Made by a program: the position numbers and the translations under genes. A DNA stretch of 64,000 nucleotides from Pseudorhodoferax soli (GTDB lineage: Bacteria; Pseudomonadota; Gammaproteobacteria; Burkholderiales; Burkholderiaceae_C): the NCBI RefSeq assembly GCF_003337555.1, contig NZ_QPJK01000009.1, forward strand, positions 310,001 to 374,000, given 5' to 3'. Position 1 is the first letter of the stretch, and every line of letters starts with the position of its first letter. The notes under the pieces were generated by a model. The model was not told the origin of the DNA. It ran no database searches and saw only the letters and a list, made by a program, of their open reading frames with translations. Positions 32,416-47,616 of the stretch are shown one piece after another.

Positions 32416-33273
32416 CTACTTCTTCTTCACGTGCGCTTCCAACTCGGCAAAGCTGGGGCGCTCGGTCGAGAACAGCACCTTGCGGCCGAACTCGATGGCG
32501 GTGGACGGGTTGTAGCCCTGCATGCTGGCCAAGAGCGTGGTCTTGATGCACTGCAGTTCCTTGGCGGCGTCCTCGCTCTTTTGTTCCAGCAGGCCGCCGA
32601 GCGGTTCCACCACGCCGTAGGCCAGCAAGATCCCGAGGAAGGTGCCCACCAGCGCGGAGGCGATCATGCCGCCCAGCACAGCCGGTGGCTGGCCGACCGA
32701 GCCCATGGTGTTCACCACGCCCAGCACGGCGGCCACGATGCCGAAGGCCGGCAGCGCGCCGGCCAGGCGCGCGATGGCAGCCACCGGGGCATGGGCTTCC
32801 TGGTGGTGGGTCTCGATCTCGCTGTCCATCAGCGACTCGATCTCGTGCGCGTTGAGGTTGCCCGACACCATCATGCGCAGGTAGTCGGTCATGAACTCCA
32901 CGACATGGTGGTCGCTGCCCACCGTGGGGTATTTCTTGAAGATCTCCGACTGCTCGGGCTCTTCCACGTCCTTCTCGATCGCCATCAGGCCCTCCTTGCG
33001 GGCCTTCTGCAGAATGTCGTAGAGCAGCGCCATGAGCTCCAGGTAGCGCTCCTTGGTGAACTTGGAGCCCTTGAACGCGGTGGGCAAGGCCTTGAGGGTG
33101 GCCCGGAGCACCTTGGGCTGGTTGTTCACCGCGAACGCACCCAGCGCGCCGCCGAAGATGGTGATCAGCTCGAACGGCAGTGCCGTCAGGATCACGCCGA
33201 TGTTGCCGCCGTGAAAGACATACACCCCAAAGATGCAGCCCATGGCGACGACGTAGCCGATGATGACGATCAT
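32416..33273 (-). CDS. motA: Flagellar stator protein MotA
   Basis: Proton-channel stator subunit, 285 residues. Four membrane segments: two N-terminal (about 4-22 and 30-50) and two C-terminal (LAGALPAFGIVAAVLGVV and MIASALVGTFLGILLAYG). The large cytoplasmic loop between carries the FliG-interacting charges. It heads the motAB-cheYZ unit. Unusually, flhDC is not upstream; the glycosylation island starts there instead. Confidence 0.96.
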   Translation of the reverse strand: MIVIIGYVVAMGCIFGVYVFHGGNIGVILTALPFELITIFGGALGAFAVNNQPKVLRATLKALPTAFKGSKFTKERYLELMALLYDILQKARKEGLMAIEKDVEEPEQSEIFKKYPTVGSDHHVVEFMTDYLRMMVSGNLNAHEIESLMDSEIETHHQEAHAPVAAIARLAGALPAFGIVAAVLGVVNTMGSVGQPPAVLGGMIASALVGTFLGILLAYGVVEPLGGLLEQKSEDAAKELQCIKTTLLASMQGYNPSTAIEFGRKVLFSTERPSFAELEAHVKKK

Positions 33274-33523: not shown

Positions 33524-35182
33524 ATGCCTGCCTCGCCGACCCTGCCGAATCTCACCGACAACGCCACCGCGCCTGCCTCCGCCAGTGTCGCGGCCAGGAT
33601 GCTGGAGGCCAAGCAATGCGAGGCGCGCAAGGACCTCGCGCGCGCGCTGCTGTGCTACATGGACGTGCTTGCGCAGGAGCCACGCCATATCGAGGCCTGG
33701 TGCGCCGTCGGCCACATCATGGTGCTGTCGCAGGACTGGCAGAAGGCCATTCCCGCGCTGGAGATCGCACTGCAGCTGCGCCCGGGCCAGCCGCACGCGC
33801 GCCGGCTGATGGCGCTGGCCATGTTGCAGGTCGGCCGGGCCGACGAGGCGCGCGCAATGATCGAAGAGGCCGCGCGCAGCGGCGGCGATGCCTCCGTGTG
33901 GGTGCTGCGGGCCTCGATTTTGGGCACCATCGACCGCGATCCGGCGCGCACGCGCGTCGTTTTCGAGGACTGGGGCCGCCGCTTCGCCGACCCGCTCACG
34001 CGCAAGTCCAAGCCCTTCTCCCGCGCCGGCCAGGATCCGCTGCGGCGCCTGCGCATCGGCTATGTCACAGCCGACTTCCGGCAGCACTCCGTGGCCTTCT
34101 TCATGCGTCCGGTGCTGCAACACCACGACCCTGCCCAGGTCGAAGTCCACGTGTATTCGAGCGGCCCGACCGACGCCGTCACTGCGCAGCTGCAGGCCCT
34201 GGTGCCGCACTGGCACGACGTGCGCGAGCTGGACGACGCAGCCCTGTACCACAAGATCCGGGCGGACCGCGTTGATGTGCTGATCGACCTGTCCGGTCAC
34301 ACGACCGGCAACCGGCTGATGGTGTTTGCCGGGCGCGCCGCGCCGGTGCAGGTCACCTGGCTGGGCTTCATGCAGACGCTGGGCATGCAGGCCATGGACT
34401 GGCGGCTGACCGACTGGGGCGCCACCCCGGCCGGGCACGAGGCCTTCTACACCGAGAAGCTGTTTCGGCTTGCATGCCTGGCCAGCTACTGCCCGCCGCC
34501 CGACGTGCCGCTGCGCGCGCGGCCGCCGATGCTGGACAACGGTTTCCCGACACTGATCTCGCTGAACAACTCCGTCAAAGTCACCGATGCCATGCTGCGC
34601 GTGTGGGCGCGCGTCCTGGCAGCCCGGCCGGACGCGCAACTGGTGCTGATGGTCAAGGAGACCAACGACGAGGCCGCCCGCGCCGTCATGCAGCCGCGCA
34701 TCGAGGCCGCGGGCCTGCCGTCGGAGCGCGTGGCCGTGCTGTCGCAGCTACCGCTGGCGGACTTCATGAAGCTGGCCGCCTTCGCCGACATCGCCGTGGA
34801 CACCGCGCCGCTGTCAGGCGGCACCACCACCATGCATGCGCTGTGGATGGGCCTGCCGGTGGTCGCGTTGAACGCCGTCCGGGCCATCGATGCCGCCAGC
34901 GCCCGCACGCTGCAGGGCATCGGTCTTGGACGCTGGGTGGCGGCCGATGAGGACGCGTACGTGGCTCTCGCGCTGGACCTGTTGGCCGATGCCGACCGGC
35001 TAGAACGCGAGCGCGGCGCTGCGCGTGCGGCGCTGCAGGCCAGCGTGCTGATGGACTACCGCGCGCGCACGACCGAGCTGGAGCAGGCTCTGCGCCTGAT
35101 GTGGGCCAACCACGTTGGCGGCCATGCGCCGCGCGCCATGGATCTGGGCTGGGACGTCGCCCGCGCGATGGCCAAGGCATGA
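33524..35182 (+). CDS. SPINDLY/O-GlcNAc-transferase-like glycosyltransferase (GT41) with TPRs
   Basis: Candidate protein O-glycosyltransferase, 552 residues. Residues about 20-160 form three TPR-like helical repeats for substrate protein binding. The catalytic part has the GT41 motifs RIGYVTADFRQHSV (H188 at the position of the OGT active-site His), LIDLSGHTTGNR, PVQVTWLGFMQTLG, NNSVKVTD (K352, nucleotide-binding Lys) and SGGTTTMHALWMGLPVV (431-447). All expected blocks are present. I prefer the ATG at 33524; a GTG at 33503 is in frame. It is the first gene of the plus-strand island next to motA and is the obvious candidate to modify flagellin. The donor sugar is unknown. The specific flagellin target is inference from context. 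Confidence 0.85.
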   Translation: MPASPTLPNLTDNATAPASASVAARMLEAKQCEARKDLARALLCYMDVLAQEPRHIEAWCAVGHIMVLSQDWQKAIPALEIALQLRPGQPHARRLMALAMLQVGRADEARAMIEEAARSGGDASVWVLRASILGTIDRDPARTRVVFEDWGRRFADPLTRKSKPFSRAGQDPLRRLRIGYVTADFRQHSVAFFMRPVLQHHDPAQVEVHVYSSGPTDAVTAQLQALVPHWHDVRELDDAALYHKIRADRVDVLIDLSGHTTGNRLMVFAGRAAPVQVTWLGFMQTLGMQAMDWRLTDWGATPAGHEAFYTEKLFRLACLASYCPPPDVPLRARPPMLDNGFPTLISLNNSVKVTDAMLRVWARVLAARPDAQLVLMVKETNDEAARAVMQPRIEAAGLPSERVAVLSQLPLADFMKLAAFADIAVDTAPLSGGTTTMHALWMGLPVVALNAVRAIDAASARTLQGIGLGRWVAADEDAYVALALDLLADADRLERERGAARAALQASVLMDYRARTTELEQALRLMWANHVGGHAPRAMDLGWDVARAMAKA

Positions 35183-35192
35183 GGGCGGACCC

Positions 35193-36359
35193 GTGAGCAG
35201 CCGGCCCCCTGCGATCGCCGTGCCGCTGCTGGTGCCGGACCTGCCCGCGCCGCAGCAGTTGCTGCCATACCTAGAGCGCATGCATGCGGCACGCCACTAT
35301 TCCAATTTTGGGCCGCTGGTCGGCGAACTGGAGCAGCGCCTCGCGCAGGGCCAGTCGGCCGAGGTCGTCACCGTCGCCAGCGCGACGCTGGGCCTGGAGC
35401 TCGTGCTGTCGGCGCTGGCGCTGCCGCCACGCTCGCGCGTGCTGGTGCCGGCACTGACCTTTGTCGCCACCGCTACGGCCGTGGCCCGTGCCGGACACGT
35501 GCCGGTGCTGTGCGACGTGGACGCCGCCAGTTGGCTGCTGACGCCGACGATCGCCGCGCGTGCGGTCCGCGATCTCGGCGCGCAGGCGGTGCTGCCCGTG
35601 GCGACATTCGGCGCACCGCAGGACATGCGCGCCTGGGCGGCGTTCGAGCAGGCCACCGGCCTGCCCGTCGTCGTCGATGCCGCCGCCGCGTTCGGCAGCC
35701 AGACCCTGCAAGGCGCGGCCGGCAGGCTGGTGTTCAGCCTGCACGCGACTAAGAGCCTGCCGGCCGGCGAGGGGGGCGTGGTGGTCAGCAGCGACGCCGC
35801 GTTGATTGCGCGGGTGCGGCAGCTGTCCAATTTCGGCATTCAACTGCAGCCCGGCGGCTCGGTCCCGGTCGGCCATCTGGCGGCTGTCGGCACCAACGCC
35901 AAGCTGAGCGAGTACCACGCTGCCGTGGGGCTCGCCGCGCTGGACCGTTGGGATGAAGGCGCGCAGCGCCGGCGCCATCTGCTGGCGCGGCTGCGTGCGG
36001 CGCTGGACGCGGCCAGCGGCGGCGCACTGGGCTGGCAAGACCTCGGCCCGCAGCCGCTGGCGGCGCCCGTCGCGCTGTGCGTGCGCCTGGGCAGCGCGGC
36101 GCGGCGCGTGCAACTCGAACGGCTGTGCAAGCGCCTGGGCATCCTGACGCGCCGCTGGTACCAGCCGTTGCTGAGCGAGGTCCAGGGCGGCACGCAGCGG
36201 TGGGAGGCCGGCGCGTTGCCGAACGCGCGCGCCATCGCGCAGGACCTTCTGGGCCTGCCCTTTTTTCCTGCCATGGACGAGGCCCAACAGGCATTGCTGG
36301 CAACCGTGGTTCGGGAAGTGTTTTGTGCGGCCGCCACACCAGCGGCGGCCGCGGTTTGA
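35193..36359 (+). CDS. DegT/DnrJ/EryC1/StrS-family sugar aminotransferase
   Basis: PLP-dependent transaminase expected to convert a keto-sugar nucleotide to an amino sugar. 388 residues. The PLP Lys is K187 in LHATKSLPAGEGG, and the pyridine-binding Asp is D162 in VVVDAAAAFG. I chose the GTG at 35193 because GAGGG lies 7 bases upstream; the frame is open to 35115 within the preceding gene. It follows the glycosyltransferase stop by 10 bases. Amino sugars such as viosamine are made by this family in Pseudomonas flagellar islands (VioA). No dehydratase or nucleotidyltransferase is encoded nearby, so the keto-sugar must come from elsewhere. Confidence 0.85.
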   Translation: MSSRPPAIAVPLLVPDLPAPQQLLPYLERMHAARHYSNFGPLVGELEQRLAQGQSAEVVTVASATLGLELVLSALALPPRSRVLVPALTFVATATAVARAGHVPVLCDVDAASWLLTPTIAARAVRDLGAQAVLPVATFGAPQDMRAWAAFEQATGLPVVVDAAAAFGSQTLQGAAGRLVFSLHATKSLPAGEGGVVVSSDAALIARVRQLSNFGIQLQPGGSVPVGHLAAVGTNAKLSEYHAAVGLAALDRWDEGAQRRRHLLARLRAALDAASGGALGWQDLGPQPLAAPVALCVRLGSAARRVQLERLCKRLGILTRRWYQPLLSEVQGGTQRWEAGALPNARAIAQDLLGLPFFPAMDEAQQALLATVVREVFCAAATPAAAAV

Positions 36360-36388
36360 CGCCACACATTCATTGATGGAGAGATAAC

Positions 36389-36616
36389 GTGGAAACGATG
36401 CAGGCATTCATTGACAAGTTCCTCGAGGCCGTCGATTTCGAGACATCGGTCGAAGTGACGGAGACGACCCCGCTGGCGGACCTGCCCGAATGGGATTCCC
36501 TCGCCGCGCTGGGCGTGATCGTGATGGCCGACATGGAGTACGGCAAGACCATTGCTGGCGAAGACCTCAAGAAATGCACGACCGTGGGCGACCTGGGTCG
36601 CCTCATTGCCGGCTGA
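36389..36616 (+). CDS. Acyl carrier protein
   Basis: Small acidic carrier, 75 residues. The phosphopantetheine attachment Ser is S37 in EWDSLAALG. The GTG at 36389 follows GGAGAG with good spacing and gives METMQAF. It is distinct from housekeeping AcpP, which has the DSLD/VELVMA signature, so it is probably dedicated to this island. It is followed 17 bases later by a KAS III and then an SDR, so the carrier, condensing enzyme and reductase are adjacent. Confidence 0.88.
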   Translation: METMQAFIDKFLEAVDFETSVEVTETTPLADLPEWDSLAALGVIVMADMEYGKTIAGEDLKKCTTVGDLGRLIAG

Positions 36617-36633
36617 GCCGGCGCGAGACAGCC

Positions 36634-37686
36634 ATGCCATACGTTTGCATCGACAACGTGCGGATCGCTGGCATCGCGAGCTGCGTGCCTCGCAATGCCG
36701 TTTCCAATCTGGACTGCCCCCCGGAGCGCCTTGCGGAGCGCCAGCGCCTGGTGCGCAACATCGGCATCGAGCACCGCCGCCTCGCCGATGCCGACGTATG
36801 CCTTTCGGATCTGACACAGCATGCCGCTGAACGGCTGCTCTCGGATCTGGGATGGTCGCGCGATGAAGTCGACGCCGTGATCGTCGTGACGCAGTCGCCC
36901 GATCATCCCTATCCCGGTAACGCGATCCTGCTGCAGGACCGTTTGGGCCTTCCTCAGAGTTGCCTGGCCTTCGACATCAACCTGGGTTGTTCCGGCTATC
37001 CCTATGGCTTGTTCGTGCTGGCGAGCATGATGTCCGCTGGCAAGCTCAAGAAGGCGCTGCTGCTGGTTGGCGACAAGTCGACCAATCCGAATTCGGAGGA
37101 CCAGGGTTTCGTCGTGCTCTTCAGCGACGCCGGCACGGCGACTGCGCTGGTCTACGACGATGCCGCGCCGCGCATGCATTTCGACCTGAACAGCGATGGC
37201 AGCGGCTACCGAGCGATCTATTGCCCGGCTGGCGGCAACCGCGTGCCGATCCAACCTGAACATCTGGTGCCCAAAGCCGACGACGCTGGCGTGGTGCGCC
37301 GGGCGGTGGACATCGTGCTGGACGGCCCGGCCATTCTGAATTTCTCGATCACGCGCATTCCGCCAGCTGTCGAGTCGCTGCTGCGGCAAGCCGGGGTTGC
37401 GGCCGAGCAGGTGGACTACTTCTTTTTGCACCAGGCCAATCGCATGATCAATGAGACGATCCGCAAGAAGCTCCGCTTGCCGCCTGAGCGGGTGCCTTCG
37501 ACGTTGCGCGAGTTCGGCAACACCAGTTCGGCCTCCATCCCCATCACGATGACGGTGGCGGCTGGCGGAGCGCTGGCCGCGGGCGGACAGCGGGTTGTCA
37601 TGAGCGGCTTCGGTGTCGGCCTGTCATGGGCCAGTTGCCTGGTCGACTTCGGGCCGACCGTGATGTCGCCGCTGGTGGAGGTCTGA
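36634..37686 (+). CDS. 3-oxoacyl-ACP synthase III (KAS III/FabH-like)
   Basis: Condenses an acyl-CoA with malonyl-ACP. 350 residues. The catalytic triad is C119 (NLGCSGYPYG), H266 (FLHQANRM) and N296 (EFGNTSSAS), so it should be active. It differs from housekeeping FabH around the active-site Cys and in having PAILNFSITRIPP, resembling the dedicated KAS III of flagellar glycan clusters. The ATG at 36634 lies 17 bases after the ACP stop; the longer frame upstream overlaps the ACP and is non-coding. Substrate chain length is unknown; a short 3-oxoacyl such as acetoacetyl would fit the pathway model. Confidence 0.87.
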   Translation: MPYVCIDNVRIAGIASCVPRNAVSNLDCPPERLAERQRLVRNIGIEHRRLADADVCLSDLTQHAAERLLSDLGWSRDEVDAVIVVTQSPDHPYPGNAILLQDRLGLPQSCLAFDINLGCSGYPYGLFVLASMMSAGKLKKALLLVGDKSTNPNSEDQGFVVLFSDAGTATALVYDDAAPRMHFDLNSDGSGYRAIYCPAGGNRVPIQPEHLVPKADDAGVVRRAVDIVLDGPAILNFSITRIPPAVESLLRQAGVAAEQVDYFFLHQANRMINETIRKKLRLPPERVPSTLREFGNTSSASIPITMTVAAGGALAAGGQRVVMSGFGVGLSWASCLVDFGPTVMSPLVEV

Positions 37687-37690
37687 ATTC

Positions 37691-38449
37691 ATGCAAGTGA
37701 CCAACCCGTTTGCATTGACGGGCCGAAGGATCCTGGTGACGGGCGCCAGCTCCGGCTTGGGTCAGGCCGCGGCTGTCGCCATTGCAGCCATGGGCGGTGA
37801 GGTCATTGGCATAGGGCGGGACGCCGCGCGGCTCGAACGGGTCGGCGCGGAGCTTGCCGCGGCGGGTCCCGCCGCCCATCGCATGTTGCGCGCCGACCTG
37901 ACCGATGCTGCGCAGCGAGAGGCCTTGCTGGAGCAACTTGGTGCGCCTGTGCAAGGTGTCCTGCACTGCGCAGGTATCTCGCGCCTGAGCCCTGTACGGC
38001 TGATGACGGAAAACCATCTGCGCGAGGTGCAGGCCATCAACTTCGATGCCCCCGTGATGCTGACGCAGGCGTTGCTCAAGCGTGGTTTGGTGGCACCGGG
38101 CGGTTCGCTGGTGTTCGTGTCGTCGATCGCAGCGCATATCGGTGTGGCCGGCGTCGGCGCTTACTCGGCGACCAAGGCCGCGTTGATCGCGTTTGTGCGC
38201 TGTCTGGCCATGGAGGTCGTCAAGCGCAAGATCCGCGCAAACTGCTTGTCGCCTGCTCTGGTCGAGACGCCATTGCTGGAAGCAACCGCGCGCGTGACCG
38301 GCGGATTGGAAGACGAGCGCAAGAACTACCCACTGGGTTTCGGCAAGCCGGAGGATGTGGCCAACGCAGCCGTGTTCCTGCTGTCCGATGCGAGCCGCTG
38401 GATCACCGGAACGACGCTGGTCATGGACGGCGGACTGACGATTTCGTGA
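37691..38449 (+). CDS. SDR family oxidoreductase, probable 3-oxoacyl-ACP reductase
   Basis: NAD(P)H-dependent reductase, 252 residues. Cofactor motif TGASSGLG (18-25), HCAGIS, and the catalytic S145, Y158 and K162 (GAYSATKAAL). The C-terminus VMDGGLTIS is FabG-like. It starts 4 bases after the KAS III stop, in the order ACP, KAS III, reductase. The Pseudomonas syringae viosamine island has an equivalent trio for a 3-hydroxybutyryl group. Reduction of the KAS III product to a 3-hydroxyacyl-ACP is the likely role; a sugar-nucleotide reductase is the main alternative. Confidence 0.84.
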   Translation: MQVTNPFALTGRRILVTGASSGLGQAAAVAIAAMGGEVIGIGRDAARLERVGAELAAAGPAAHRMLRADLTDAAQREALLEQLGAPVQGVLHCAGISRLSPVRLMTENHLREVQAINFDAPVMLTQALLKRGLVAPGGSLVFVSSIAAHIGVAGVGAYSATKAALIAFVRCLAMEVVKRKIRANCLSPALVETPLLEATARVTGGLEDERKNYPLGFGKPEDVANAAVFLLSDASRWITGTTLVMDGGLTIS

Positions 38450-38451
38450 CC

Positions 38452-38601
38452 ATGGGTTCTGATCGCTGCCAGGCCTTGATCGTCGGTGCGCGCGGCTTTG
38501 GCCGCGAAGTTCGTAGCGCAGCCATCTATTTCCTATCCGACACCAGCCGTTGGGTCACGGGCACAGCCCTGGTAATGGATGGCGGGCTGACGGCGCTCTG
38601 A
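38452..38601 (+). pseudogene. Chimeric 49-codon remnant: acyltransferase start fused to an SDR end
   Basis: A short ORF that is not a normal protein. Codons 7-20 read QALIVGARGFGREV, matching the nucleotide-binding start of NeuD/PglD-type acyltransferases (compare NLIIIGAGGFGREV in the gene at 39784). Codons 23-49 read SAAIYFLSDTSRWVTG and then TALVMDGGLTAL, matching the C-terminus of the SDR just upstream (NAAVFLLSDASRWITG, TLVMDGG) but not identical to it. It is best explained as a deletion that joined the start of one acyltransferase gene to the end of a second SDR gene, in frame. It begins two bases after the intact SDR stop. It may be translated, but function is unlikely. Confidence 0.75.
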
Positions 38602-38614
38602 GCACGAACCGGAA

Positions 38615-38683
38615 ATGAACGATATGCAGCGCAATCTGCTGACTGGACCGGGCAACCTGGCGCGGTGCTTCGCCTTCCGTTGA
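38615..38683 (+). other. 22-codon ORF in the deletion scar
   Basis: An ATG at 38615 opens 22 codons (MNDMQRNLLTGPGNLARCFA...) ending three bases before the Rieske gene start. I recognise no family. It could be the end product of the same deletion, a leader peptide coupling translation into the oxygenase, or chance. Confidence 0.2.
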
Positions 38684-38686
38684 AGC

Positions 38687-39787
38687 ATGGCCACCGGTCT
38701 GATTGAGCCCTGCCTCTACAGGGACCCCGCGCACCATGCGCAGGAGTTGCACGGGTTGTTTCGGCAGTCCTGGGTGTTTGCCGGTTTGCTGCTGGAATTG
38801 CAGGGGCTTGCGCACCAGGTCGTGCGCATCGCGAACACGGAGGTGCTGCTGCAATGCGACAGGAGCGGCAAGCCGCGTGCGTTCCTGAACGTCTGCGCGC
38901 ACCGTCATGCCCAGCTGTGCAGCCCGGGCAAGCATGAAGGCGCGGTGCGCTGCCCTTATCACGGCTGGGTCTATGACCGGGAGGGTGTCCCCGTGGGCAT
39001 TCCGGGCAAACAGGCATTCCCCGAAGTGGTGGCGCAGCCGGAGCAGTACCGGCTGGCCGAGTTCAACTGCGAAGCCGTCGGGCAGTTTGTCTTCGTGCGC
39101 CTGGCGAGCGCAGGCCCTGGCCTGCGCGACTGGTTGGGCACGCAATACGAATTTCTGGAGCGTGCCAGCCTGGGCATGAGCGGCATCACCGACGAGTTCC
39201 GCAAGAGCGTGGACGCCAACTGGAAGGTCGTCATCGAAAACTCGCTGGAGGGCTATCACGTGCCCGCCGTGCATTCCACCACCTTCATGCAGGTGGACGG
39301 CATGAGCCGCGAGGAAGCCGCCCCTGTTTTCTTTCTGGGCGACCCGCGCCACAGCCACCTGGAGCACCCGGCCAACGCGGACTGGGTCGCCAGTTTCGCG
39401 CGCATGGAGCGCAAGATCGGCCGCTGGCCCTGGCGCTTCGAGCACTACACGCACCGCCTGATCTTCCCGAACCTGACGGTCACGTCCTTCATGGGCTATA
39501 GCTTCCACATCCAGCGCTTCGACCCCACCGCGCCGGAACTGACCACCGTGCATTCGCGCACCACGGGCGTGAAGTTCGAGGGCGGCACGGAAATGGGTCG
39601 CAAGATGATGGAGCGCATCTACGCCGACGGCCAGGCCTTCACCGACAAGGTGTTCGGCGAGGACAGCGGCATCTGTGCCAAGGTGCAGGCGGGTTTGCGC
39701 AACGCGCAGCGGCTGGCGGTGCTGGGCGAAGGCATCGAAGACCGCGTGCGGCATTTCCAGCGTGCGTATGTGGCGGCGACGAAATGA
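38687..39787 (+). CDS. Rieske non-haem iron oxygenase, alpha-subunit type (module 1)
   Basis: Probable oxygenase that hydroxylates or demethylates a small molecule using O2 and reductase-supplied electrons. 366 residues. The Rieske [2Fe-2S] ligands are C70-x-H72 and C89-x2-H92 (NVCAHRH, CPYHGW). The mononuclear iron site is in NSLEGYHVPAVH with H191 and H196 and E188 at the bridging position. No reductase or ferredoxin gene is nearby. It overlaps the acyltransferase gene by four bases (ATGA). Compare the second Rieske gene at 41741. The substrate is unknown; a glycan or its acyl group is inferred from context. Confidence 0.86.
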   Translation: MATGLIEPCLYRDPAHHAQELHGLFRQSWVFAGLLLELQGLAHQVVRIANTEVLLQCDRSGKPRAFLNVCAHRHAQLCSPGKHEGAVRCPYHGWVYDREGVPVGIPGKQAFPEVVAQPEQYRLAEFNCEAVGQFVFVRLASAGPGLRDWLGTQYEFLERASLGMSGITDEFRKSVDANWKVVIENSLEGYHVPAVHSTTFMQVDGMSREEAAPVFFLGDPRHSHLEHPANADWVASFARMERKIGRWPWRFEHYTHRLIFPNLTVTSFMGYSFHIQRFDPTAPELTTVHSRTTGVKFEGGTEMGRKMMERIYADGQAFTDKVFGEDSGICAKVQAGLRNAQRLAVLGEGIEDRVRHFQRAYVAATK

Positions 39788-40485
39788 AGAACCTCATCAT
39801 CATTGGCGCAGGCGGATTCGGGCGCGAGGTTTTGATGACGGCCATCGACAACCCGTGCAATGGCGCGGATTGGCTCATCAAGGGCTTCCTCGACAACCGC
39901 CCAAACATCCTCGACGGTTTCGCGCAGGATGCGAACAAAGTGGCCTATGCCATAGATTTTTCCGAAGAGAAGCGCATGCGCTACCGCCGGGACCATCCCA
40001 TCCTCGGCGACCCGCTGACCTACGAACCACAAGAAGGCGATGTCTTCCTTTGCGCACTGGGTGATCCCGCCCAGCGGCGGAAATACGTCGAACCATTGCT
40101 GGCCAAAGGCGCCGAGTTTGTCCGCCTGGTACATCCGCTAGCGGCGGTTTCCGCCTTTGCCAGCGTCGGGCCGGGCAGCATCATTGGCGCTTATGTCAGC
40201 CTGTCGCCCGATTGCCATGTCGGCCAGCACTGCACCGTCAGTTACGGTGCAGTGCTGGGGCACGACACCACGGTTGCGGATTGGGCGGAAATAGGCACGC
40301 GCTGCCTCGTCAGCGGCAATGTCAAGATTGGCTCTGCCGCTCGCGTCTATCCGGGCGCGATCATCATCCCGAAAGCACACATCGGCGAACACGCCGTGGT
40401 CGCCGCAGGCAGCGTCGTATTCAAACCCGTCAAGGCACACACCACCGTGATGGGCAACCCGGCACGAACATTCAATTGGAAATAG
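39784..40485 (+). CDS. Left-handed beta-helix acyltransferase, NeuD/PglD type (module 1)
   Basis: Probable sugar N- or O-acyltransferase, 233 residues. Residues 1-75 form a Rossmann-like N-terminal domain beginning IIIGAGGFGREV. From about 115 to 225 there are hexapeptide repeats (VGPGSIIGAYV, IGTRCLVSGNVKIG, VYPGAIIIPKAHIG). The catalytic His candidate is in GHDTTV. The last residues TVMGNPAR are typical of the fold. Its start overlaps the Rieske stop by four bases. The acyl donor could be acetyl-CoA or the island's acyl-ACP. Confidence 0.86.
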   Translation: MKNLIIIGAGGFGREVLMTAIDNPCNGADWLIKGFLDNRPNILDGFAQDANKVAYAIDFSEEKRMRYRRDHPILGDPLTYEPQEGDVFLCALGDPAQRRKYVEPLLAKGAEFVRLVHPLAAVSAFASVGPGSIIGAYVSLSPDCHVGQHCTVSYGAVLGHDTTVADWAEIGTRCLVSGNVKIGSAARVYPGAIIIPKAHIGEHAVVAAGSVVFKPVKAHTTVMGNPARTFNWK

Positions 40486-40492
40486 GCTTTTG

Positions 40493-41728
40493 ATGTCTTT
40501 TGACCTCAGCAACTATGACTTGAGCGCTGCTGCCACGCAAAAGGCACGAGAAAAGCTGATCGACGTGGTCAACCGGTGCCGAAATGATCGCTACGCCTTC
40601 TTTCCGGAGAACGTCTTCGAGATGGTGGCTGGGCCACAGGCACCGCGCGTGGTGGTGTTCAGCACCCGTGGCCCGGATTGCGGTCACCATGTTGAGCAGA
40701 TTTCGGCTGCAGCCCGGCTCAAGGGAGGCTATATCGAGGCGCTGGTGCATGACCCAAGCGATACCGAGAACCGCAACAATCCAGCCTTGTCGGCCTACAA
40801 ACAAATCACGTTGGAAGAGTTCTTTGCCGACACGGCTGCTTTTGCCGGCTGCTTGATCGTTGACCGCACCAGCACTTGGTATCCAGCCGTCCGCTACAAG
40901 ACCAAGCTCAAGCAGGCTGGCTTCAATGTGCTGCGGCAGGAGCAATTCCTCAATGCACCCGGCTTGGAGGCCAGTGGCGGCTTCTACCGCGAACACGCCG
41001 ACGTCATGCTGAATCGGTTCGAGGAATTCCTGGCTTTGGAGCGGATTTGGGGGGACGCTTTCTCGCGCCAGACCTATTACTACGCATTGGCATCGTTCAT
41101 CAGCATGAACTACCAATACTTCGCATTCCATTGCGGAGATCACCTGCAAAGTTATTTTTCTCCGGATATTGACCTGAAACTGGGTCCCGACACCGTCTAT
41201 GCAGACTGCGGCTCGCATGACGGCCGGGAAGTCCTTATTTTTTCCGAAAGGGTCAAGCATCAATTCAAAGCCGTGCATGCCTTTGAACCGGATCGCCGCA
41301 ACTTTGTCCTGCTATCAAACACCGTGACCCGCCACATCGCACAGCATGGTGCGTTGCCGATCTATTGCCATGAATTGGGCGTGTTTGATCGCGATGGCTA
41401 CCTGCATGCAGAGGGCCATGGCACGCAGGTCGTCATCACGGAGCAAACGGAAACGGCTGGCGCGGGCCTGCATGTTTGCAAGCTGGACAACATGCTCGAC
41501 GAACTTGGGCACCTGCGCCTGGAAATCGAAGGCGCGGAACTTGCCGCCCTGCATGGTGCACGCCAACTCATCCTCAAGCACCGCCCCACCATGACGGTGT
41601 CGGTTTACCACAAAGCCTCGGATTTCCTGGAACTGCCCCGTTTCATCGAAGAGACCGGCCTGGACTACCAACTTTCCCTGCGCCATCAATCGCTGGAGCC
41701 CGGCGTGCTCTGCATTTACGCGGTTTGA
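40493..41728 (+). CDS. FkbM-family methyltransferase with N-terminal extra domain (module 1)
   Basis: Probable SAM-dependent O-methyltransferase, 411 residues. Residues about 235-400 are the FkbM domain, with motif I VYADCGSHDGRE, HAFEPDRRN and LRLEIEGAE (341-349). In FkbM the last motif is normally KxDxEGxE; here the Asp is Glu (E344). Residues 1-210 form a separate domain (VVVFSTRG, YIEALVHDP, LIVDRTSTW) with a Rossmann-like rhythm that I cannot name. I chose the ATG at 40493 over the TTG just before it. It follows the acyltransferase by 7 bases and precedes the second Rieske gene by 12. Confidence 0.8.
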   Translation: MSFDLSNYDLSAAATQKAREKLIDVVNRCRNDRYAFFPENVFEMVAGPQAPRVVVFSTRGPDCGHHVEQISAAARLKGGYIEALVHDPSDTENRNNPALSAYKQITLEEFFADTAAFAGCLIVDRTSTWYPAVRYKTKLKQAGFNVLRQEQFLNAPGLEASGGFYREHADVMLNRFEEFLALERIWGDAFSRQTYYYALASFISMNYQYFAFHCGDHLQSYFSPDIDLKLGPDTVYADCGSHDGREVLIFSERVKHQFKAVHAFEPDRRNFVLLSNTVTRHIAQHGALPIYCHELGVFDRDGYLHAEGHGTQVVITEQTETAGAGLHVCKLDNMLDELGHLRLEIEGAELAALHGARQLILKHRPTMTVSVYHKASDFLELPRFIEETGLDYQLSLRHQSLEPGVLCIYAV

Positions 41729-41740
41729 GAAAAGCTTGCC

Positions 41741-42877
41741 ATGCTGCCCTTGCTCAGACCCTTTCACTACACCGATAGCGACTGGTTCGCGCAGGAACAA
41801 ACCCGCATCTTCGGTCGTCTATGGATTCTTGCGGCGGTCAAGCCAATGCTGGCCAAACACCGCGACTACCGCACGCTGACACTGGCCGGCAAGCAGGTCG
41901 TGCTGCAGAACCATGATGGCGTCATCCGTGCATTCAGCAACGTCTGTCGCCATCGCATGGCCCGGATCCAGAACGAGGAATTCGGCAACCGCGCGATGGT
42001 GTGCCCGTACCACAACTGGGCCTACGATGCGTGCGGCAAGCTGATCCACACCCACCGCGATCCAGCGGTATTCGGCTTCACGCCAGAGGAAACCGCCGAC
42101 ATCGGCCTGCCGCAATACGCCGTGGCAACCATCGGCAGTTTGGTGTTCGTCAATTTGAGCGACGACCCGCTGCCGATCGAGGAGCAATTCGACGACCACA
42201 CGCGGGAACTGCTGGAACGCTACACGGCGCAGATGGACAGCAGCTTCATCTACACCCGCTACGAGGGCGCGTTCAACTGGAAGACCGGCATGGAGAACAT
42301 CAAGGATGCACTGCATGTCCCTTGCCTGCACAAATCGACCTTCCCCACGTATTTCCGAGTCGACGTCATGGGGGATGAAGCCTTCCATGGCCGCGACAGC
42401 ACATACCTGCCGCGCGATGACAGCCTGCGGCAAGCCACGTCCAGCGGCGGCCTCCGTTTCGCCCAGGATGGGGATGCTCCAGCGCACGAATGGAAACGGC
42501 TGGTGCATCGCCTGGACTGCCAGGGAAACTACCTGACGTTCCATCTTTTTCCCAATGTCAATCTGATGATCGTGGACGGCAGTTCGTTTGCCATCCAGAT
42601 CTACAACCCGCTGGCCGCGGGACGTACTGAAATGCAGATGATGGTGGCATTGACCAGGCCTGTGGACGACTTCTCCTACAAGCCGGTGGTGCTGTGGGAG
42701 CATCTGGTCAGCGACATGACGGTGTTGCAGCAGGACATCGACTGCCTGGAAGCCTTGCAGACCGGGCTGGCATCCGCCCAGGACCACGGGTTCATCCATG
42801 GTGCTTATGAAACTGGCATCCTCGATTTTCAGGCTGCCTGTCTCCGGCAGATGCAGGTTGCGGAGAAGCCGCAATGA
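41741..42877 (+). CDS. Rieske non-haem iron oxygenase, alpha-subunit type (module 2)
   Basis: Second oxygenase of the island, 378 residues. Rieske ligands are C69-x-H71 (NVCRHRM) and C88-x2-H91 (CPYHNW). The iron site is ENIKDALHVPCLH with D189, H192 and H197, closer to the classical bridging Asp than in the first copy. It is only distantly similar to the module 1 enzyme, so a different position or substrate is likely. Its stop overlaps the next acyltransferase ATG by four bases, the same arrangement as in module 1. No electron-transfer partner is encoded here. Confidence 0.86.
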   Translation: MLPLLRPFHYTDSDWFAQEQTRIFGRLWILAAVKPMLAKHRDYRTLTLAGKQVVLQNHDGVIRAFSNVCRHRMARIQNEEFGNRAMVCPYHNWAYDACGKLIHTHRDPAVFGFTPEETADIGLPQYAVATIGSLVFVNLSDDPLPIEEQFDDHTRELLERYTAQMDSSFIYTRYEGAFNWKTGMENIKDALHVPCLHKSTFPTYFRVDVMGDEAFHGRDSTYLPRDDSLRQATSSGGLRFAQDGDAPAHEWKRLVHRLDCQGNYLTFHLFPNVNLMIVDGSSFAIQIYNPLAAGRTEMQMMVALTRPVDDFSYKPVVLWEHLVSDMTVLQQDIDCLEALQTGLASAQDHGFIHGAYETGILDFQAACLRQMQVAEKPQ

Positions 42878-43503
42878 AAAAATTGTGGCTCTTCCATGCG
42901 GGCGGCGATCTGGAACACATACGGCACGAAATCCTGCGGGACGGGCAATATGAAATATCCGGCGTGCTTGAGTTGGAAGAGGGTGGTTATGGCGTGCCCC
43001 AGCCCCCGGATAAAGCCATCCTGGCGCAAGTGCGCCAGGACGGGGCTGCCTGTTTCATCATCGGCGATGCGCGGCTGCTCAACCAATCCCGCCTTGCGGC
43101 CTACATGGCGATAAAGGCGGGGGGGGTACGCATCATCCCGCTGAAAGCGCCGAGTAGCTCCGTCGCGGATGGCGTCAAACTCCGCGAAAACGTGTGGACC
43201 GGCCATGCCGCACGGGTGCTGCCCGGCGTCAGCATCGGTGCCAATACCTGGGTGATGCAAAACAGCGAGTTGGGCACCAACTGCAAGGTCGGCAGTTCCT
43301 GCTGGATAGGCCCGAATTGCCAAATCTCCGAGCGCGCGACTCTAGGCAAGAATTGCACGCTGGGGCACGGTACCGTCATCGGCCCGGCTGTGGCGCTTCC
43401 CGACTGGAGCACCATCGGAAACAACGTCACCATCACGCAATCCCCCGATACCACGCTGTTCATCGACCCGCGCTTTCGCGCGCCGGTTCGTATTTTCAAT
43501 TGA
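42874..43503 (+). CDS. Left-handed beta-helix acyltransferase, NeuD/PglD-like (module 2)
   Basis: Probable acyltransferase, 209 residues. The N-terminal domain (LWLFHAGGDLEHIRHEI, AACFIIGDARLL) resembles PglD_N but lacks its GxGGxG loop. Hexapeptide repeats run from about 95 to 190 (VLPGVSIGANTWVMQ, LGTNCKVGSSCWIG, LGKNCTLGHGTVIG). The LGHGTVIG block holds the likely catalytic His. It overlaps the Rieske gene by four bases and precedes an FkbM gene by 11. Confidence 0.8.
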   Translation: MKKLWLFHAGGDLEHIRHEILRDGQYEISGVLELEEGGYGVPQPPDKAILAQVRQDGAACFIIGDARLLNQSRLAAYMAIKAGGVRIIPLKAPSSSVADGVKLRENVWTGHAARVLPGVSIGANTWVMQNSELGTNCKVGSSCWIGPNCQISERATLGKNCTLGHGTVIGPAVALPDWSTIGNNVTITQSPDTTLFIDPRFRAPVRIFN

Positions 43504-43514
43504 TAGAGAGCGAT

Positions 43515-44732
43515 ATGTATCCAGTCAATTTCTCTGCATTCATGACGGAAGAGGACACGCTCCACGCCATCGGAGAAACCCATAGGGTTTTGGAGGATAT
43601 TTATCAATGCTGGGAACAGCAGGGAACTCCCGCACTCAAAAATCTGGAGCATCCCCTTCTCTCCGACATCGACCCTGGAAGGTCGCATCCCATCGTCTTG
43701 TTGAGCGCATCCAATGGCCACGCCTGGCATTTCATTGCGCAAGCGTGCCGCAATCTCAATGTGATTGGCATCATAGACAATTATCGTGTTGGACAGGTAG
43801 AGTGCGGCATTGCAATTGGCGCGGACGAGTCCTTGTACGATTTGAAGCGCCAGCATCCTTCGCTTGTAACGGTGAACCTCGCGGTCGGTCCGGCCGGTAT
43901 CCTGCATTTCCGTGTCTTAGCGGCACACGCCGGAGTGCCGTGCCTGGAACGCCCGGAAGGCCTTAGGAAGCTATCCATTCACCCTACCCACTTCTCGGAG
44001 CACGAAATCGGTGAAAAGACCATTTCCATGCTTCCGGCGCTTGTTTCGGCATCGCTGGCGGGCGGGTTGGCCGACAAGCTTTCCGAACTCACCTGCCTGC
44101 GCATCCTGTTGTACAGGATCACGCTGCGCAGGGAATTTGCATGGTCGGTCTGCATCGGCATGGAGCAGAACATCTACTGCCCGAGCATATTCAACTATAC
44201 CGACAACGAAACACTTGTGGATGGCGGCGCCTTTACCGGCGACACCATCTCGTCATTTCTGAAAATCGTCGGCGGTTGGTACAACCGCATCCATGCGTTC
44301 GAGCCCGATTCCGAGAATTATGCTGAATTGGACAAAGCACTCTGCAAGCTGCCGCGTACCTATTCCTATGTGAGGGGGCTGGCTGCAAAGGCCGAGACAT
44401 TGCGGTTCTCATCCCACGGCTCACCGGGTTCTCATCTGGATGAGCAGGGAACTTCTGAAGTAAAGGTGGTAGCGCTGGATGAGGTTGTCGATGAGGTGGT
44501 TACATTTTTTAAACTTAATGTCGAAGGAGCTGAGGTCGCCGCTCTGGAAGGAGCGAAACGAACGATCTCGACCCATCGACCAAAAATTGCCGCAAGCGTG
44601 GATCACTTGCCGGATGATTTGATAACCATCCCTGAAAAAATCAGAGACATTGAATCTGGTTATGACGTTTTCATCCGCCATCACTCCAATGAGTACTGGG
44701 GCGCATATTTGTACGCCCGGCCAAAGTCCTGA
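43515..44732 (+). CDS. FkbM-family methyltransferase with N-terminal extra domain (module 2)
   Basis: 405 residues. The C-terminal FkbM domain has motif I LVDGGAFTGDT (234-244), HAFEPDSEN and FFKLNVEGAE (331-340). The Asp of the KxDxEGxE motif is Asn (N335), so activity is less certain than for the third copy. Residues 1-210 resemble the N-terminal domains of the other two FkbM proteins (IVLLSASNG, VIGIIDNY), with a shared helical stretch before the methyltransferase (CLRILLYRITLRR). The ATG at 43515 follows GAGAG; the frame upstream overlaps the acyltransferase and is non-coding. The local GC is the lowest of the window. Confidence 0.8.
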   Translation: MYPVNFSAFMTEEDTLHAIGETHRVLEDIYQCWEQQGTPALKNLEHPLLSDIDPGRSHPIVLLSASNGHAWHFIAQACRNLNVIGIIDNYRVGQVECGIAIGADESLYDLKRQHPSLVTVNLAVGPAGILHFRVLAAHAGVPCLERPEGLRKLSIHPTHFSEHEIGEKTISMLPALVSASLAGGLADKLSELTCLRILLYRITLRREFAWSVCIGMEQNIYCPSIFNYTDNETLVDGGAFTGDTISSFLKIVGGWYNRIHAFEPDSENYAELDKALCKLPRTYSYVRGLAAKAETLRFSSHGSPGSHLDEQGTSEVKVVALDEVVDEVVTFFKLNVEGAEVAALEGAKRTISTHRPKIAASVDHLPDDLITIPEKIRDIESGYDVFIRHHSNEYWGAYLYARPKS

Positions 44733-44798
44733 ACACCGGCGTTGAGTTCTGCTGTCGACTGTCGTTGTCGAACCCATAATCAACTGAAAGAACGAGCC

Positions 44799-45974
44799 AT
44801 GAAAACCGATATCGATGACATCAGAAAAAAGGTGGTACAGGCCGCAGCAGCGAACTATTCCCCGCCGAAAATTGAAGCGCTTGCCGAACGCCCGGTTTTC
44901 CTGATGGGCCCAACCTCGACCATTGGCAGTTTGTTCGGGAAACAGGTGGCAGCCGCGACGCGCGTGGTCGCCGCGGTCGACGACATTTCGAAAGACGCCT
45001 CGATTCATGGCGCTCCCCGCTGGACGAGCGCGGAATTTCTGGAGCGGGCCAAGAAATATCCCAATGCCATCGCCATCGATTTTTCCGGCGGCCCGTACGT
45101 GCGTTGGCTGGTCACCCGCCTTTGCGAGGACGCCGGCGGGGTGGAGCGGCGGGATTTTGCCTTGGTGGCGAATCAATTGAAGCTGAGTGCCGTCTTCGAG
45201 ACGTGCGATGTGTACCGTGATCGCACCTTGGGGCGCATGGACGAGTTTCTCGCCGTCGCGGATCGATTCACCGATGAACTCAGCCGGGCAACATTGTATT
45301 CAAATCTACTGTTTCGCCTGACCTGCGATCGTGATCATCTGCTGCCGGTGTGGAACCCTTACGATGAATATTTTGCCAGAGCGGACCATGGTCAGACGGT
45401 CACTTTCAAACCGGGGTTGAACGAGCATTTCGTGGATTGCGGAGCCCACCAGGGCACGATTATCCAAAGGCTGTTGGGGGCCACGGGAGGACGCTACAAG
45501 AGCATCACCGCGTTCGAGCCGGATCGCATCAATTTTGAAAAGCTCCAGAATCTGGTGCCGATGCCCTTGCCCAATTACAAACCGATCAACAAGGCGGTTT
45601 CCAATAAGCACGAAAAGCTGCGTTTCGTGGAAACCGGCACGATGTCGAGTTACGTTTCCGCCAACGGCAACACCGTCGTCCAGACGACCACGTTGGACGA
45701 TGAAGTCGAGCAGGCCACCTTCCTCAAGATGGATATCGAGGGCTTCGAAAGCAAGGCATTGCAAGGGTCGACGCGGCTGCTCGCACAGCGACCGCGGGTC
45801 GCTGTTTGCGTGTACCACCTCGCACATGATTTGCTGGATGTGTTGAGTGTGCTGGACAAGAACGTCGAGAACTACCACTACAAGTTGCGCCAGCACTACG
45901 CCGGCTGGTATTACGACTTGGTCCTGTACGGGTCGCCGGTCGATGGAGTCGACGCTCCGTCTTGGGCCGCTTGA
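44799..45974 (+). CDS. FkbM-family methyltransferase with N-terminal extra domain (third copy)
   Basis: 391 residues. The FkbM domain has motif I FVDCGAHQGT (211-220), TAFEPDRIN and LKMDIEGFE (309-317), the canonical motif with Asp, so this is the most probably active copy. The N-terminal domain (PVFLMGPTSTIG, RVVAAVDDISK, AIAIDFSGG) looks like a nucleotide-sugar or cofactor-binding Rossmann fold, followed by a helical segment (ATLYSNLLFRLT) shared with the other two. I prefer the ATG at 44799 after GAAAGAACGAG. It stands alone without its own Rieske/acyltransferase pair and is the last intact island gene before the flagellins. Confidence 0.82.
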   Translation: MKTDIDDIRKKVVQAAAANYSPPKIEALAERPVFLMGPTSTIGSLFGKQVAAATRVVAAVDDISKDASIHGAPRWTSAEFLERAKKYPNAIAIDFSGGPYVRWLVTRLCEDAGGVERRDFALVANQLKLSAVFETCDVYRDRTLGRMDEFLAVADRFTDELSRATLYSNLLFRLTCDRDHLLPVWNPYDEYFARADHGQTVTFKPGLNEHFVDCGAHQGTIIQRLLGATGGRYKSITAFEPDRINFEKLQNLVPMPLPNYKPINKAVSNKHEKLRFVETGTMSSYVSANGNTVVQTTTLDDEVEQATFLKMDIEGFESKALQGSTRLLAQRPRVAVCVYHLAHDLLDVLSVLDKNVENYHYKLRQHYAGWYYDLVLYGSPVDGVDAPSWAA

Positions 45975-46413: not shown

Positions 46414-47616
46414 TTACTGCTGCAGCAACTGCAACACCTGCTGCGGCAGCTGATTCGCCTGGGCCACCATCGCTGTGCCCGCCTGCTGCAGGATCTGCGT
46501 GCGCGACAGGTTGGCGGTTTCCTTGGCGAAATCGGCGTCGACGATGCGTCCGCGCGCAGCGGCCAGGTTCTCGATCTGGATCTCGATGTTGGCCACCGAA
46601 CTCTCGAACCGGCTCTGTAGCGCACCGAGGTCGGCGCGCGCGTTGTTGACCTGGTCGATGGCGCCGTCGATCTTCTTCAGCGCCACCCAGGCGTCACGCT
46701 GCGTGGCGATGGTCATGGTGTCGATGCCCTGCAGCGACTTCGGATCGGTTTCGGCGGCGACCGTCGGGGTGAAGCCCGTGTCCGCCGCGCTGAAGCCGGT
46801 GAAGGTCACGGCCTTGGGCACGCCGGCGGTGTCCAGCTGTCCCGACATGATGTCGATCGAGTACAGGCCGGTTTCTTCGCGTGTCAGGAAGGCGGTGACT
46901 CCGGTGTCGGCGGACTTCCGGTTGATCGCCTCGACGATCTGGCCCATGCGCTCTGCGCCGGAGCTCGCGGACTGGATCGGCCCCAGGTCGATGGCCGAGG
47001 CGCCGGCGACCTGGACGCTCAGCGAGCCGGCCGCAAGCGGCTCCAGGTTGGTGACGACGGCCGCGTCGATGCCGGCCGCGCTGCCGGTCGCGTAGGCGAT
47101 GCGCGAGAGCCCGTCGGCGGTGGTGTCGGTCAGCGCGCCGACGGTGATGTTGTCGCCCGAGTTCGCGCCGACCTGGAACACGGCACCCGAGAACGTGCCG
47201 TCCAGGATCTTGGTGCCGTTGAAGGTGGTCTGCTTGGCCACGCGGTCGACTTCGTCGATCAGCTGCGCCACTTCTGCTTGCAGTGCCGCGCGGTCGGCCT
47301 TGCTGTTGGTCGCGTTGCCGGCCTGCACCGCCAGTTCGCGCATGCGCTGCAGCATGTCGCCGACCTTGCCCAGCGCGCCTTCGGCCGTCTGCGCCAGCGA
47401 AATGCCGTCATTGGAATTGCGCGCCGCCACGGTCTGGCCGCGCACTTGGGTGTTCATGCGCTCGGCAATGGCCAGGCCTGCGGCATCGTCCTTGGCGCTG
47501 TTCACGCGCAGGCCGGACGACAGGCGCTGCATGGAAGTCGCCAGCGAGCCTTGGGACGTGCCCAGGTTGCGCTGGGCATTCAGCGAAACGATGTTGGTGT
47601 TGATGGTCGAGGCCAT
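46414..47616 (-). CDS. fliC: Flagellin FliC, copy 1 (minus strand)
   Basis: Filament subunit, 400 residues. The start is the ATG at 47616 (MASTINTNIVSLNAQRNLG) after GCAGGAG; the frame's upstream extension is non-coding. N-terminal D0/D1 (SSGLRVNSAKDDAAGLAIAE) and C-terminal D1/D0 (ARGRIVDADFAKETANLS) are well conserved; the short middle is the variable surface domain with several Ser/Thr that could carry O-glycans. It is divergent from a close paralog 350 bases away. Exported by the flagellar type III system with FliS as chaperone. Confidence 0.95.
   Translation of the reverse strand: MASTINTNIVSLNAQRNLGTSQGSLATSMQRLSSGLRVNSAKDDAAGLAIAERMNTQVRGQTVAARNSNDGISLAQTAEGALGKVGDMLQRMRELAVQAGNATNSKADRAALQAEVAQLIDEVDRVAKQTTFNGTKILDGTFSGAVFQVGANSGDNITVGALTDTTADGLSRIAYATGSAAGIDAAVVTNLEPLAAGSLSVQVAGASAIDLGPIQSASSGAERMGQIVEAINRKSADTGVTAFLTREETGLYSIDIMSGQLDTAGVPKAVTFTGFSAADTGFTPTVAAETDPKSLQGIDTMTIATQRDAWVALKKIDGAIDQVNNARADLGALQSRFESSVANIEIQIENLAAARGRIVDADFAKETANLSRTQILQQAGTAMVAQANQLPQQVLQLLQQ

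What the first reader, a model, noticed from the sequence alone, without database searches (positions are those of the whole stretch)
33524..45974. Candidate flagellin-glycosylation island with an unusual enzyme set
Between motA and the flagellins lies a plus-strand run of 11 intact genes: GT41 glycosyltransferase, DegT aminotransferase, ACP, KAS III, SDR, two Rieske oxygenases, two beta-helix acyltransferases and three FkbM methyltransferases. Known islands (Pseudomonas aeruginosa a-type, P. syringae viosamine) share aminotransferase, ACP, KAS III, SDR, acyltransferase and methyltransferase functions. Rieske oxygenases and a SPINDLY-type transferase are not part of those as I know them. Together they predict an acylated, methylated and oxidised amino sugar on flagellin. 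The target is inferred from position only.
Basis: partly seen in the sequence, partly recalled or inferred. Interest (0 to 1): 0.88.

Follow-up and report, generated by a model that had tools for sequence, protein, structure and literature searches.

The report
Flagellin-sugar island with Rieske oxygenases
Twelve genes beside the flagellin genes most likely build an unusual oxidised amino sugar and attach it to the bacterial flagellum; similar gene sets, oxygenase included, turned up in several dozen other genomes, so this is a little-described variant rather than a one-off.

Summary
The genes are real: twelve (not eleven) open plus-strand genes between motA and two flagellins. A flagellin-sugar island is well supported. 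All five same-genus genomes carry GT41 genes in the same slot beside motA, without this acyl/Rieske module, and equivalent modules lie beside flagellin in Xylophilus, Delftia, Acidovorax SUPP3334 and Paracidovorax, and within 10 kb in five Xanthomonas.

The claimed oddity is weaker than stated. SPINDLY-type GT41 is in print for enterobacterial flagellin islands (PMC4875605), and a Rieske gene is listed in the Xanthomonas flagellar cluster (PMC3826837). The module ACP-KAS III-SDR-NeuD-Rieske recurs: all 9 other order genomes with a close KAS III also have a Rieske gene in the fetched 20 kb.

Against: only 11 of 35 named genomes have a strong flagellin within 15 kb of the module.

What looks new is a Rieske sub-group tied to these modules, a paired NeuD-fold protein without a conserved catalytic histidine, and a chimeric scar ORF at 38452-38601. 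Chemistry and target are inferred, not shown.

The parts
33524..35182 (+). GT41 (SPINDLY/O-GlcNAc-transferase type) glycosyltransferase with TPR repeats; ATG start 33524, longest frame from 33503
   Evidence: Pfam PF13844 5.8e-42; nearest solved proteins 5djs 1.3e-80 and plant SPINDLY 7y4i 5.7e-76
35193..36359 (+). DegT/DnrJ/EryC1/StrS sugar aminotransferase; start at 35193 is my guess, longest frame from 35115
   Evidence: PF01041 1e-63
36389..36616 (+). acyl carrier protein, 75 aa, DSL phosphopantetheine motif (motif recalled)
   Evidence: PF00550 9.2e-05, 23.1 bits against cut-off 20.8
36634..37686 (+). beta-ketoacyl-ACP synthase III; ATG 36634 chosen by me, longest frame from 36490
   Evidence: PF08541 1.6e-28, PF08545 2.3e-13
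37691..38449 (+). SDR, 3-oxoacyl-ACP reductase-like
   Evidence: PF13561 1.7e-50; 71% to L141 and L142, 49% to Xylophilus L051
38452..38601 (+). 49-codon scar ORF: NeuD-like start joined to SDR-like end
38687..39787 (+). Rieske oxygenase RO1
   Evidence: PF00355 1.3e-14 and PF00848 3.6e-21; C-x-H/C-x2-H and E-x2-H-x4-H motifs present
39784..40485 (+). NeuD/VioB-type sugar N-acyltransferase, overlaps RO1 by 4 bases, His160 present
   Evidence: TIGR03570 over cut-off; nearest solved protein VioB 7txp 3.8e-24
40493..41728 (+). FkbM-family methyltransferase 1; ATG 40493 chosen by me
   Evidence: PF05050 2.5e-07, TIGR01444 over cut-off
41741..42877 (+). Rieske oxygenase RO2
   Evidence: PF00355 5.1e-15 and PF00848 6.1e-17; motifs present; 88% to Xylophilus
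42874..43503 (+). LbH2: NeuD/PglD-fold hexapeptide protein, overlaps RO2 by 4 bases; acyltransferase role not shown
   Evidence: PF00132 2.6e-20; below TIGR03570 cut-off; model mean pLDDT 94.3; His not conserved
43515..44732 (+). FkbM-family methyltransferase 2; ATG 43515 chosen by me, longest frame from 43194
   Evidence: PF05050 2.5e-15
44799..45974 (+). FkbM-family methyltransferase 3; ATG 44799 chosen by me, longest frame from 44742
   Evidence: PF05050 1.3e-11, TIGR01444 over cut-off
32416..33273 (-). motA, left border of the slot
   Evidence: PF20560 2e-33; 98-99% identical in 5 same-genus genomes
46414..47853 (-). flagellin 1, proposed acceptor (longest frame; the true start is probably later)
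   Evidence: PF00669 1.1e-46, PF00700 1.8e-28
47967..49166 (+). flagellin 2, proposed acceptor
   Evidence: PF00669 1.7e-48, PF00700 3.9e-27

Best explanation
A flagellin-glycosylation island of the viosamine type with an added oxidation step. Proposed order, inferred from families unless marked: (1) DegT turns a nucleotide 4-keto-6-deoxy sugar into a 4-amino sugar (a strong RmlB lies elsewhere in the genome: shown). (2) ACP, KAS III and SDR build a short 3-hydroxyacyl-ACP. (3) NeuD moves that acyl group onto the amino group. (4) The Rieske oxygenases hydroxylate the acyl group or the sugar next to it, with electrons from partners encoded elsewhere; LbH2 is a partner of RO2 that holds or further acylates the product. 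(5) FkbM enzymes add O-methyl groups. (6) GT41, the only glycosyltransferase of the island, puts the sugar on Ser/Thr of the adjacent flagellins. The island looks like a mosaic with a joint at 38452-38601.
For: All parts present and open. Key residues present: Rieske and 2-His motifs, NeuD His. NeuD closest to VioB among solved proteins. P. syringae precedent with mutants and mass spectra (PMC3927599 passages). Slot beside motA holds GT41 in 5 of 5 same-genus genomes. Same slot and nearly the same genes in Xylophilus. Strong flagellin within 15 kb of the module in 11 of 35 named genomes and 3 of 9 unnamed order genomes found by KAS III (G332, G168, G091). Flagellar genes in 9 of 35 module loci against 0 of 45 other Rieske loci of the same scan. 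GT41 has a DegT within 400 bases in 18 of 27 cases.
Against: No chemistry was tested. Of the 35 named genomes, 21 have the module on another contig than any strong flagellin, one 517 kb away, one has no flagellin match at all; fragmented assemblies blur this. One module lies beside a pilin-like gene. No sigma-28 site upstream of the island. LbH2 lacks a conserved histidine; NeuD relatives keep theirs in only 28 of 42 rows. No glycosyltransferase specificity can be read from GT41.
Confidence: 0.6

Rival explanations
1. The sugar is made for another acceptor (type IV pilin, O-antigen, another glycoprotein), and the place beside flagellin is incidental or flagellin is one of several targets.
For: 24 of 35 named genomes have no strong flagellin within 15 kb of the module (one of these is Xylophilus, where a flagellin end lies at the contig edge). 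Rhodanobacter L109 has a distant module and no flagellin match in its genome. In L046 (G172) two GT41 frames lie between the module and a pilin-like gene.
Against: In this genus the slot beside motA always held GT41 (5 of 5), and the same slot is used in Xylophilus and Delftia. SPINDLY-type GT41 is already linked to flagellin islands (PMC4875605).
Confidence: 0.17
2. Same island and acceptor, but the Rieske enzymes do something other than acyl hydroxylation: O- or N-demethylation, ring-carbon oxidation, or N-oxidation of the amino sugar.
For: Nearest solved proteins include demethylases and carnitine monooxygenase besides ring dioxygenases; the best NCBIfam model, far below cut-off, is glycine betaine monooxygenase. 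FkbM methyltransferases sit between and behind them.
Against: Rieske genes go with the ACP-KAS III-SDR-NeuD block also where no FkbM match was found: 25 of 40 loci have an FkbM match and all 40 a Rieske match, which is by construction for 36.
Confidence: 0.3
3. The island is decaying: a recombination or deletion removed a second SDR and the pathway no longer works.
For: Scar ORF 38452-38601; 35 of 40 module loci have two SDR genes.
Against: All twelve genes are open with Rieske motifs kept; five loci, L141 and L142 among them, whose SDR is the closest, also have one SDR near KAS III, so one may be enough.
Confidence: 0.08

Closest known systems
Xanthomonas flagellar-cluster genes XCV2000-XCV2013 (PMC3826837, table passages seen); probably overlaps the ten-gene gigX flagellin-glycosylation island of X. 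oryzae, known to me only through passages of PMC8657755 and a reference entry
   Same: Aminotransferase, ACP, 3-oxoacyl-ACP synthase, two SDRs, acetyltransferase, Rieske protein and a glycosyltransferase inside the flagellar cluster; the module is present in five Xanthomonas genomes here
   Different: One Rieske per module there, two different ones here; no GT41 match in those five Xanthomonas loci within the held flanks; here a second SDR is lost and FkbM1 is inserted
P. syringae viosamine island (PMC3927599, abstract and passages)
   Same: Aminotransferase, methyltransferase, KAS III, NeuD-type acyltransferase, SDR, ACP; tested in mutants by mass spectrometry
   Different: Seven genes, none named as a Rieske or GT41 protein in the passages; VioT is a 1,173-aa transferase
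Enterobacterial flagellin glycosylation islands (PMC4875605, passages)
   Same: GT41 with SPINDLY domain, DegT, FkbM, ACP and FabG-type genes beside flagellin
   Different: The words Rieske, dioxygenase and oxygenase do not occur in its main text
NamH, muramic-acid N-acetyl hydroxylase (PMC10050696, passages)
   Same: Precedent for a Rieske protein that turns the N-acetyl group of an amino sugar into N-glycolyl
   Different: UlaG plus Rieske domain; the present proteins carry the Ring_hydroxyl_A catalytic domain: perhaps a like job, a different family

Membership tests
Flagellin glycosylation island | Sugar-making and transfer genes within or beside the flagellar cluster | tested here: met
   motA on one side, two flagellins on the other
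Flagellin glycosylation island | Flagellin shown to carry the sugar | not testable with these tools
   needs mass spectrometry
Viosamine-type island | Aminotransferase, ACP, KAS III, SDR and NeuD/VioB-type acyltransferase together | tested here: met
Viosamine-type island | dTDP-4-keto-6-deoxyglucose supply (RmlB) in the genome | tested here: met
   TIGR01181 500.4 bits against 365.1 at C9:79297-80298
Viosamine-type island | VioT-type transferase | not tested
   no VioT sequence was compared; the island's only transferase is GT41
GT41 glycosyltransferases | Glyco_transf_41 domain with TPR repeats | tested here: met
GT41 glycosyltransferases | UDP-GlcNAc as donor | not testable with these tools
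   donor specificity cannot be read here; DegT adjacency in 18 of 27 suggests an amino sugar
Rieske oxygenases, ring-hydroxylating alpha type | C-x-H, C-x2-H cluster ligands and D/E-x2-H-x4-H iron site (motifs recalled) | tested here: met
   both window proteins; Pfam PF00355 and PF00848
NamH/CMAH-type N-acyl hydroxylases | UlaG-type plus Rieske domain without Ring_hydroxyl_A | tested here: not met
   PF00848 present, no UlaG-type match in Pfam
NeuD acyltransferases (second protein, LbH2) | TIGR03570 over cut-off and conserved catalytic His | tested here: not met
   64.6 against 160.8 bits; His in 2 of 39 relatives; fold alone agrees

The most novel reading that the evidence does not exclude
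A Rieske sub-group, not discussed in the papers I could search, has evolved with ACP-KAS III-SDR-NeuD modules to oxidise the acyl group of a protein-bound 4-amino sugar. Each RO2-type enzyme works with its own NeuD-fold partner that has lost the acyltransferase histidine and acts as a substrate-holding or product-passing subunit. Modules move between flagellin, pilin and other acceptors and recombine inside SDR genes, giving surface proteins new oxidised sugars.
Probability: 0.33. Interest if true: 0.72.

Novelty: new variant of a known kind. Interest (0 to 1): 0.5.

Why it matters
If true, oxygen-dependent hydroxylation is a regular step in making surface-protein sugars in a scattered set of Burkholderiales and Xanthomonadales, among them plant-associated species where flagellin sugars bear on immune recognition. 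It also gives a testable function to a Rieske sub-group that family models name only as ring-hydroxylating, and shows how such islands can change by recombination between modules.

Tried and rejected
Rejected: that GT41 plus Rieske is unique here. Rejected: that a Rieske gene goes with every related KAS III; at 34-39% KAS III identity one of three loci has one (L151; L152 none in 20 kb; L153 is cut by a contig end right beside KAS III). Rejected: that the module marks flagellin loci everywhere.

Led nowhere: sigma-28 scan, three weak sites against 0.45 expected, one of them just before fliS, none upstream of the island; class-level RO2 search, only the own genome of 369; papers holding Rieske with flagellin and glycosylation island, none, with flagellin glycosylation, one off-topic. 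One search gave 42 papers of which 15 were listed and none read further except PMC3826837. The RO2 model is modest (mean pLDDT 76, part of the catalytic region under 50) and I draw nothing from it; of the five LbH2 models the best has 94.3, the worst 65.6.

Bias told: all 35 module loci of the public scan, and L045, were reached through a Rieske query, so only the KAS III searches speak to how regular the Rieske is. The scan kept 80 of 110 confirmed loci. ACP plus KAS III were required to call a locus a module. Tree: two fragments of L053 were dropped, 104 of 106 rows kept; the program warns of long branches. The 35-genome flagellin count used only matches of E 2.5e-28 or better and left out weaker, FlgL-like ones; it also left out some further strong matches on contigs without the module, which cannot change a same-contig distance. 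The L053 locus has NeuD, RO1 and RO2 in pieces; left as is.
Full report
What is there. 33524-45974 holds twelve open plus-strand genes: GT41 glycosyltransferase, DegT aminotransferase, ACP, KAS III, SDR, Rieske oxygenase RO1, NeuD, FkbM1, Rieske oxygenase RO2, a second hexapeptide protein (LbH2), FkbM2 and FkbM3. RO1/NeuD and RO2/LbH2 overlap by four bases (coordinates). To the left lie motA, motB, a response regulator, cheZ, flhB, flhA and an SRP54-type GTPase gene (probably flhF); to the right two divergent flagellins, fliD, fliS, fliT, fliE, fliF and fliG. The same-order genome G303 has a contig of the same length (1,585,987) as a Massilia phyllostachyos record, so the order is Burkholderiales in GTDB terms; this is inference.

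Is the flagellin link more than position? In the five other held genomes of the genus motA is 98-99% identical. The stretch next to it holds one to four GT41 matches (29-36% identical to the window's), in three of the five with a DegT match. In L145 the contig ends inside the slot after 4.3 kb; in the other four the flagellins are reached. None has an ACP, KAS III or Rieske match there, and the best RO2 match anywhere in these genomes is E 1.1e-19 to 5.6e-16, no better than in unrelated genomes. So the slot is a variable glycosylation locus of the genus and the Rieske module a local acquisition. FliC1 and FliC2 are 74-78% identical to two relatives (L147, L148) where fliD, fliE, fliG and motA are 92-99%. 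In Xylophilus ampelinus eleven of the twelve genes (FkbM2 missing) plus a second SDR lie between a flagellin end and motA. In two Delftia records, Acidovorax SUPP3334 and Paracidovorax KAS III is 0.6-3.5 kb from a flagellin, in five Xanthomonas 9.4-9.7 kb; in Acidovorax A1169 and Xenophilus it is on another contig.

How general. A search with RO2 found 8 of 399 order genomes, own included, at E 1e-30; one of the seven others (G316) has two distant Rieske genes without ACP or KAS III, and one (G087) is a 3.9-kb contig that starts inside an SDR. In the class sample only the own genome of 369 matched. A scan of public genomes kept 80 loci, of which 35 hold both ACP and KAS III. With five unnamed-genome loci that makes 40: all have SDR and NeuD matches, 37 DegT, 32 LbH2, 25 GT41, 25 an FkbM. 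A Rieske query was the way in for 36 of them. The fairer test is KAS III: 10 of 399 order genomes, own included, and all nine others have a Rieske gene in the same fetched 20 kb, RO2-type in five, nearest to RO1 in four (two of these at only 27-30% identity and in a group of their own in the tree). In a phylum sample, 8 of 398 (own included, three already met), one new close module (L150, 49% KAS III) has two Rieske-LbH pairs, while of three loci at 34-39% one has a Rieske gene and no NeuD match. So the Rieske belongs to this sub-type of module, not to all KAS III clusters.

Tree. In a maximum-likelihood tree of 104 Rieske proteins, the 52 module rows share one side of a starred branch (100/98) with five others; 47 non-module rows are on the other. 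The five are two Xanthomonas Rieske-LbH pairs without KAS III (L069, L078), a short contig (L058), and two long-branched rows (L084, L088). Window RO1 groups with Xylophilus, G151, G168 and Methylovorus; RO2 with Xylophilus, Methylovorus and Methylobacillus glycogenes. The module label needs five changes, so one origin is not shown.

Mosaic and scar. RO1, NeuD, FkbM1, RO2, LbH2 and FkbM3 are 74-88% identical to Xylophilus, but KAS III and SDR are closer to G151 (L141: 72 and 71%) than to Xylophilus (54 and 49%); GT41 and DegT are 58-59% to Xylophilus. Between the blocks lies the ORF 38452-38601. Window 38381-38510 matches the SDR-to-NeuD junction of L141 (73% over 133 bases), and 38533-38591 matches SDR ends again (80% to L141, 79% to L142, weaker to L051). 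The simplest reading is a recombination or deletion between two SDR genes that left a NeuD start joined to an SDR end and removed a second SDR. The match does not tell the donor of the second half, and an assembly error is not excluded.

Mechanism. P. syringae gives the tested precedent: its island makes dTDP-N-(3-hydroxy-1-oxobutyl)-2-O-methylviosamine, and deletion of vioR removes that sugar from flagellin (PMC3927599, abstract and passages). Here NeuD is closest to VioB among solved proteins and keeps the histidine that aligns with VioB's (its catalytic role is recalled), and a clear RmlB is in the genome. Rieske genes beside NeuD suggest oxidation of the acyl group, as NamH does on muramic acid (PMC10050696, passages), but these enzymes are of another Rieske family; the nearest solved ones are ring-hydroxylating dioxygenases, demethylases and carnitine monooxygenase. 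The job may be alike, the family is not, and demethylation or N-oxidation stay open. LbH2 is modelled with a NeuD-like Rossmann part plus beta-helix, but the histidine is kept in 2 of 39 relatives, while LbH2 follows the RO2-type gene in 32 of the 35 loci that have one. I call it a partner of unknown role. NeuD itself keeps the histidine in 28 of 42 aligned rows, many of the others having tyrosine.

Against. Only 11 of 35 named genomes have a strong flagellin within 15 kb, 12 if the flagellin end at the Xylophilus contig edge is counted, and 3 of the 9 order genomes. In 21 of the 35 it is on another contig, in one 517 kb away, and one genome has no flagellin match. One module lies beside a pilin-like gene. 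Flagellar genes were found in 9 of 35 module loci against 0 of 45 other Rieske loci of the same scan, but those controls are not matched for taxonomy. The acceptor here is supported by place and by the genus comparison, not proved.

Known or new. GT41 with SPINDLY domain in flagellin islands is in print (PMC4875605, passages). A Rieske protein in the Xanthomonas flagellar cluster is in print as a table row (PMC3826837, passages). Searches for Rieske with flagellin and glycosylation island, with flagellin, ACP, aminotransferase and glycosyltransferase, with flagellin glycosylation, and a broader one (15 of 42 listed) showed no paper that discusses it; the library lacks most subscription papers, and the gigX paper was not held. 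I rate it a new variant of a known kind; the interest lies in the Rieske sub-group, its LbH partner and the scar.

Noticed in passing
L146 2242-9027; L149 8013-14792: Two same-genus genomes hold four GT41 matches in tandem in the motA slot, so the slot seems to collect protein glycosyltransferases.
   Followed up: partly
L046 14128-18348: A module with two GT41 frames next to a type IV pilin-like gene, which hints at a pilin target in that genome.
   Followed up: partly
L109 3981-10639: Rhodanobacter has DegT-ACP-KAS III-Rieske-SDR-NeuD-KAS III-Rieske but no flagellin match in its genome.
   Followed up: no
L069 10001-11627; L078 10001-11636: Rieske-LbH pairs of the module type without ACP or KAS III in two Xanthomonas genomes.
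   Followed up: no
NeuD genes of L054, L055, L066, L067, L071, L072 and others: The histidine position of NeuD is tyrosine in Massilia- and Acidovorax-type modules, so acyl transfer there may work differently.
   Followed up: no
L053 7989-12912: In Methylobacillus glycogenes NeuD, RO1 and RO2 match in pieces, by frameshift or sequencing error.
   Followed up: no
own genome C5:457246-457656 and C5:500534-500938, outside the window: Two more flagellin-family matches on another contig hint at a second flagellar gene set.
   Followed up: no
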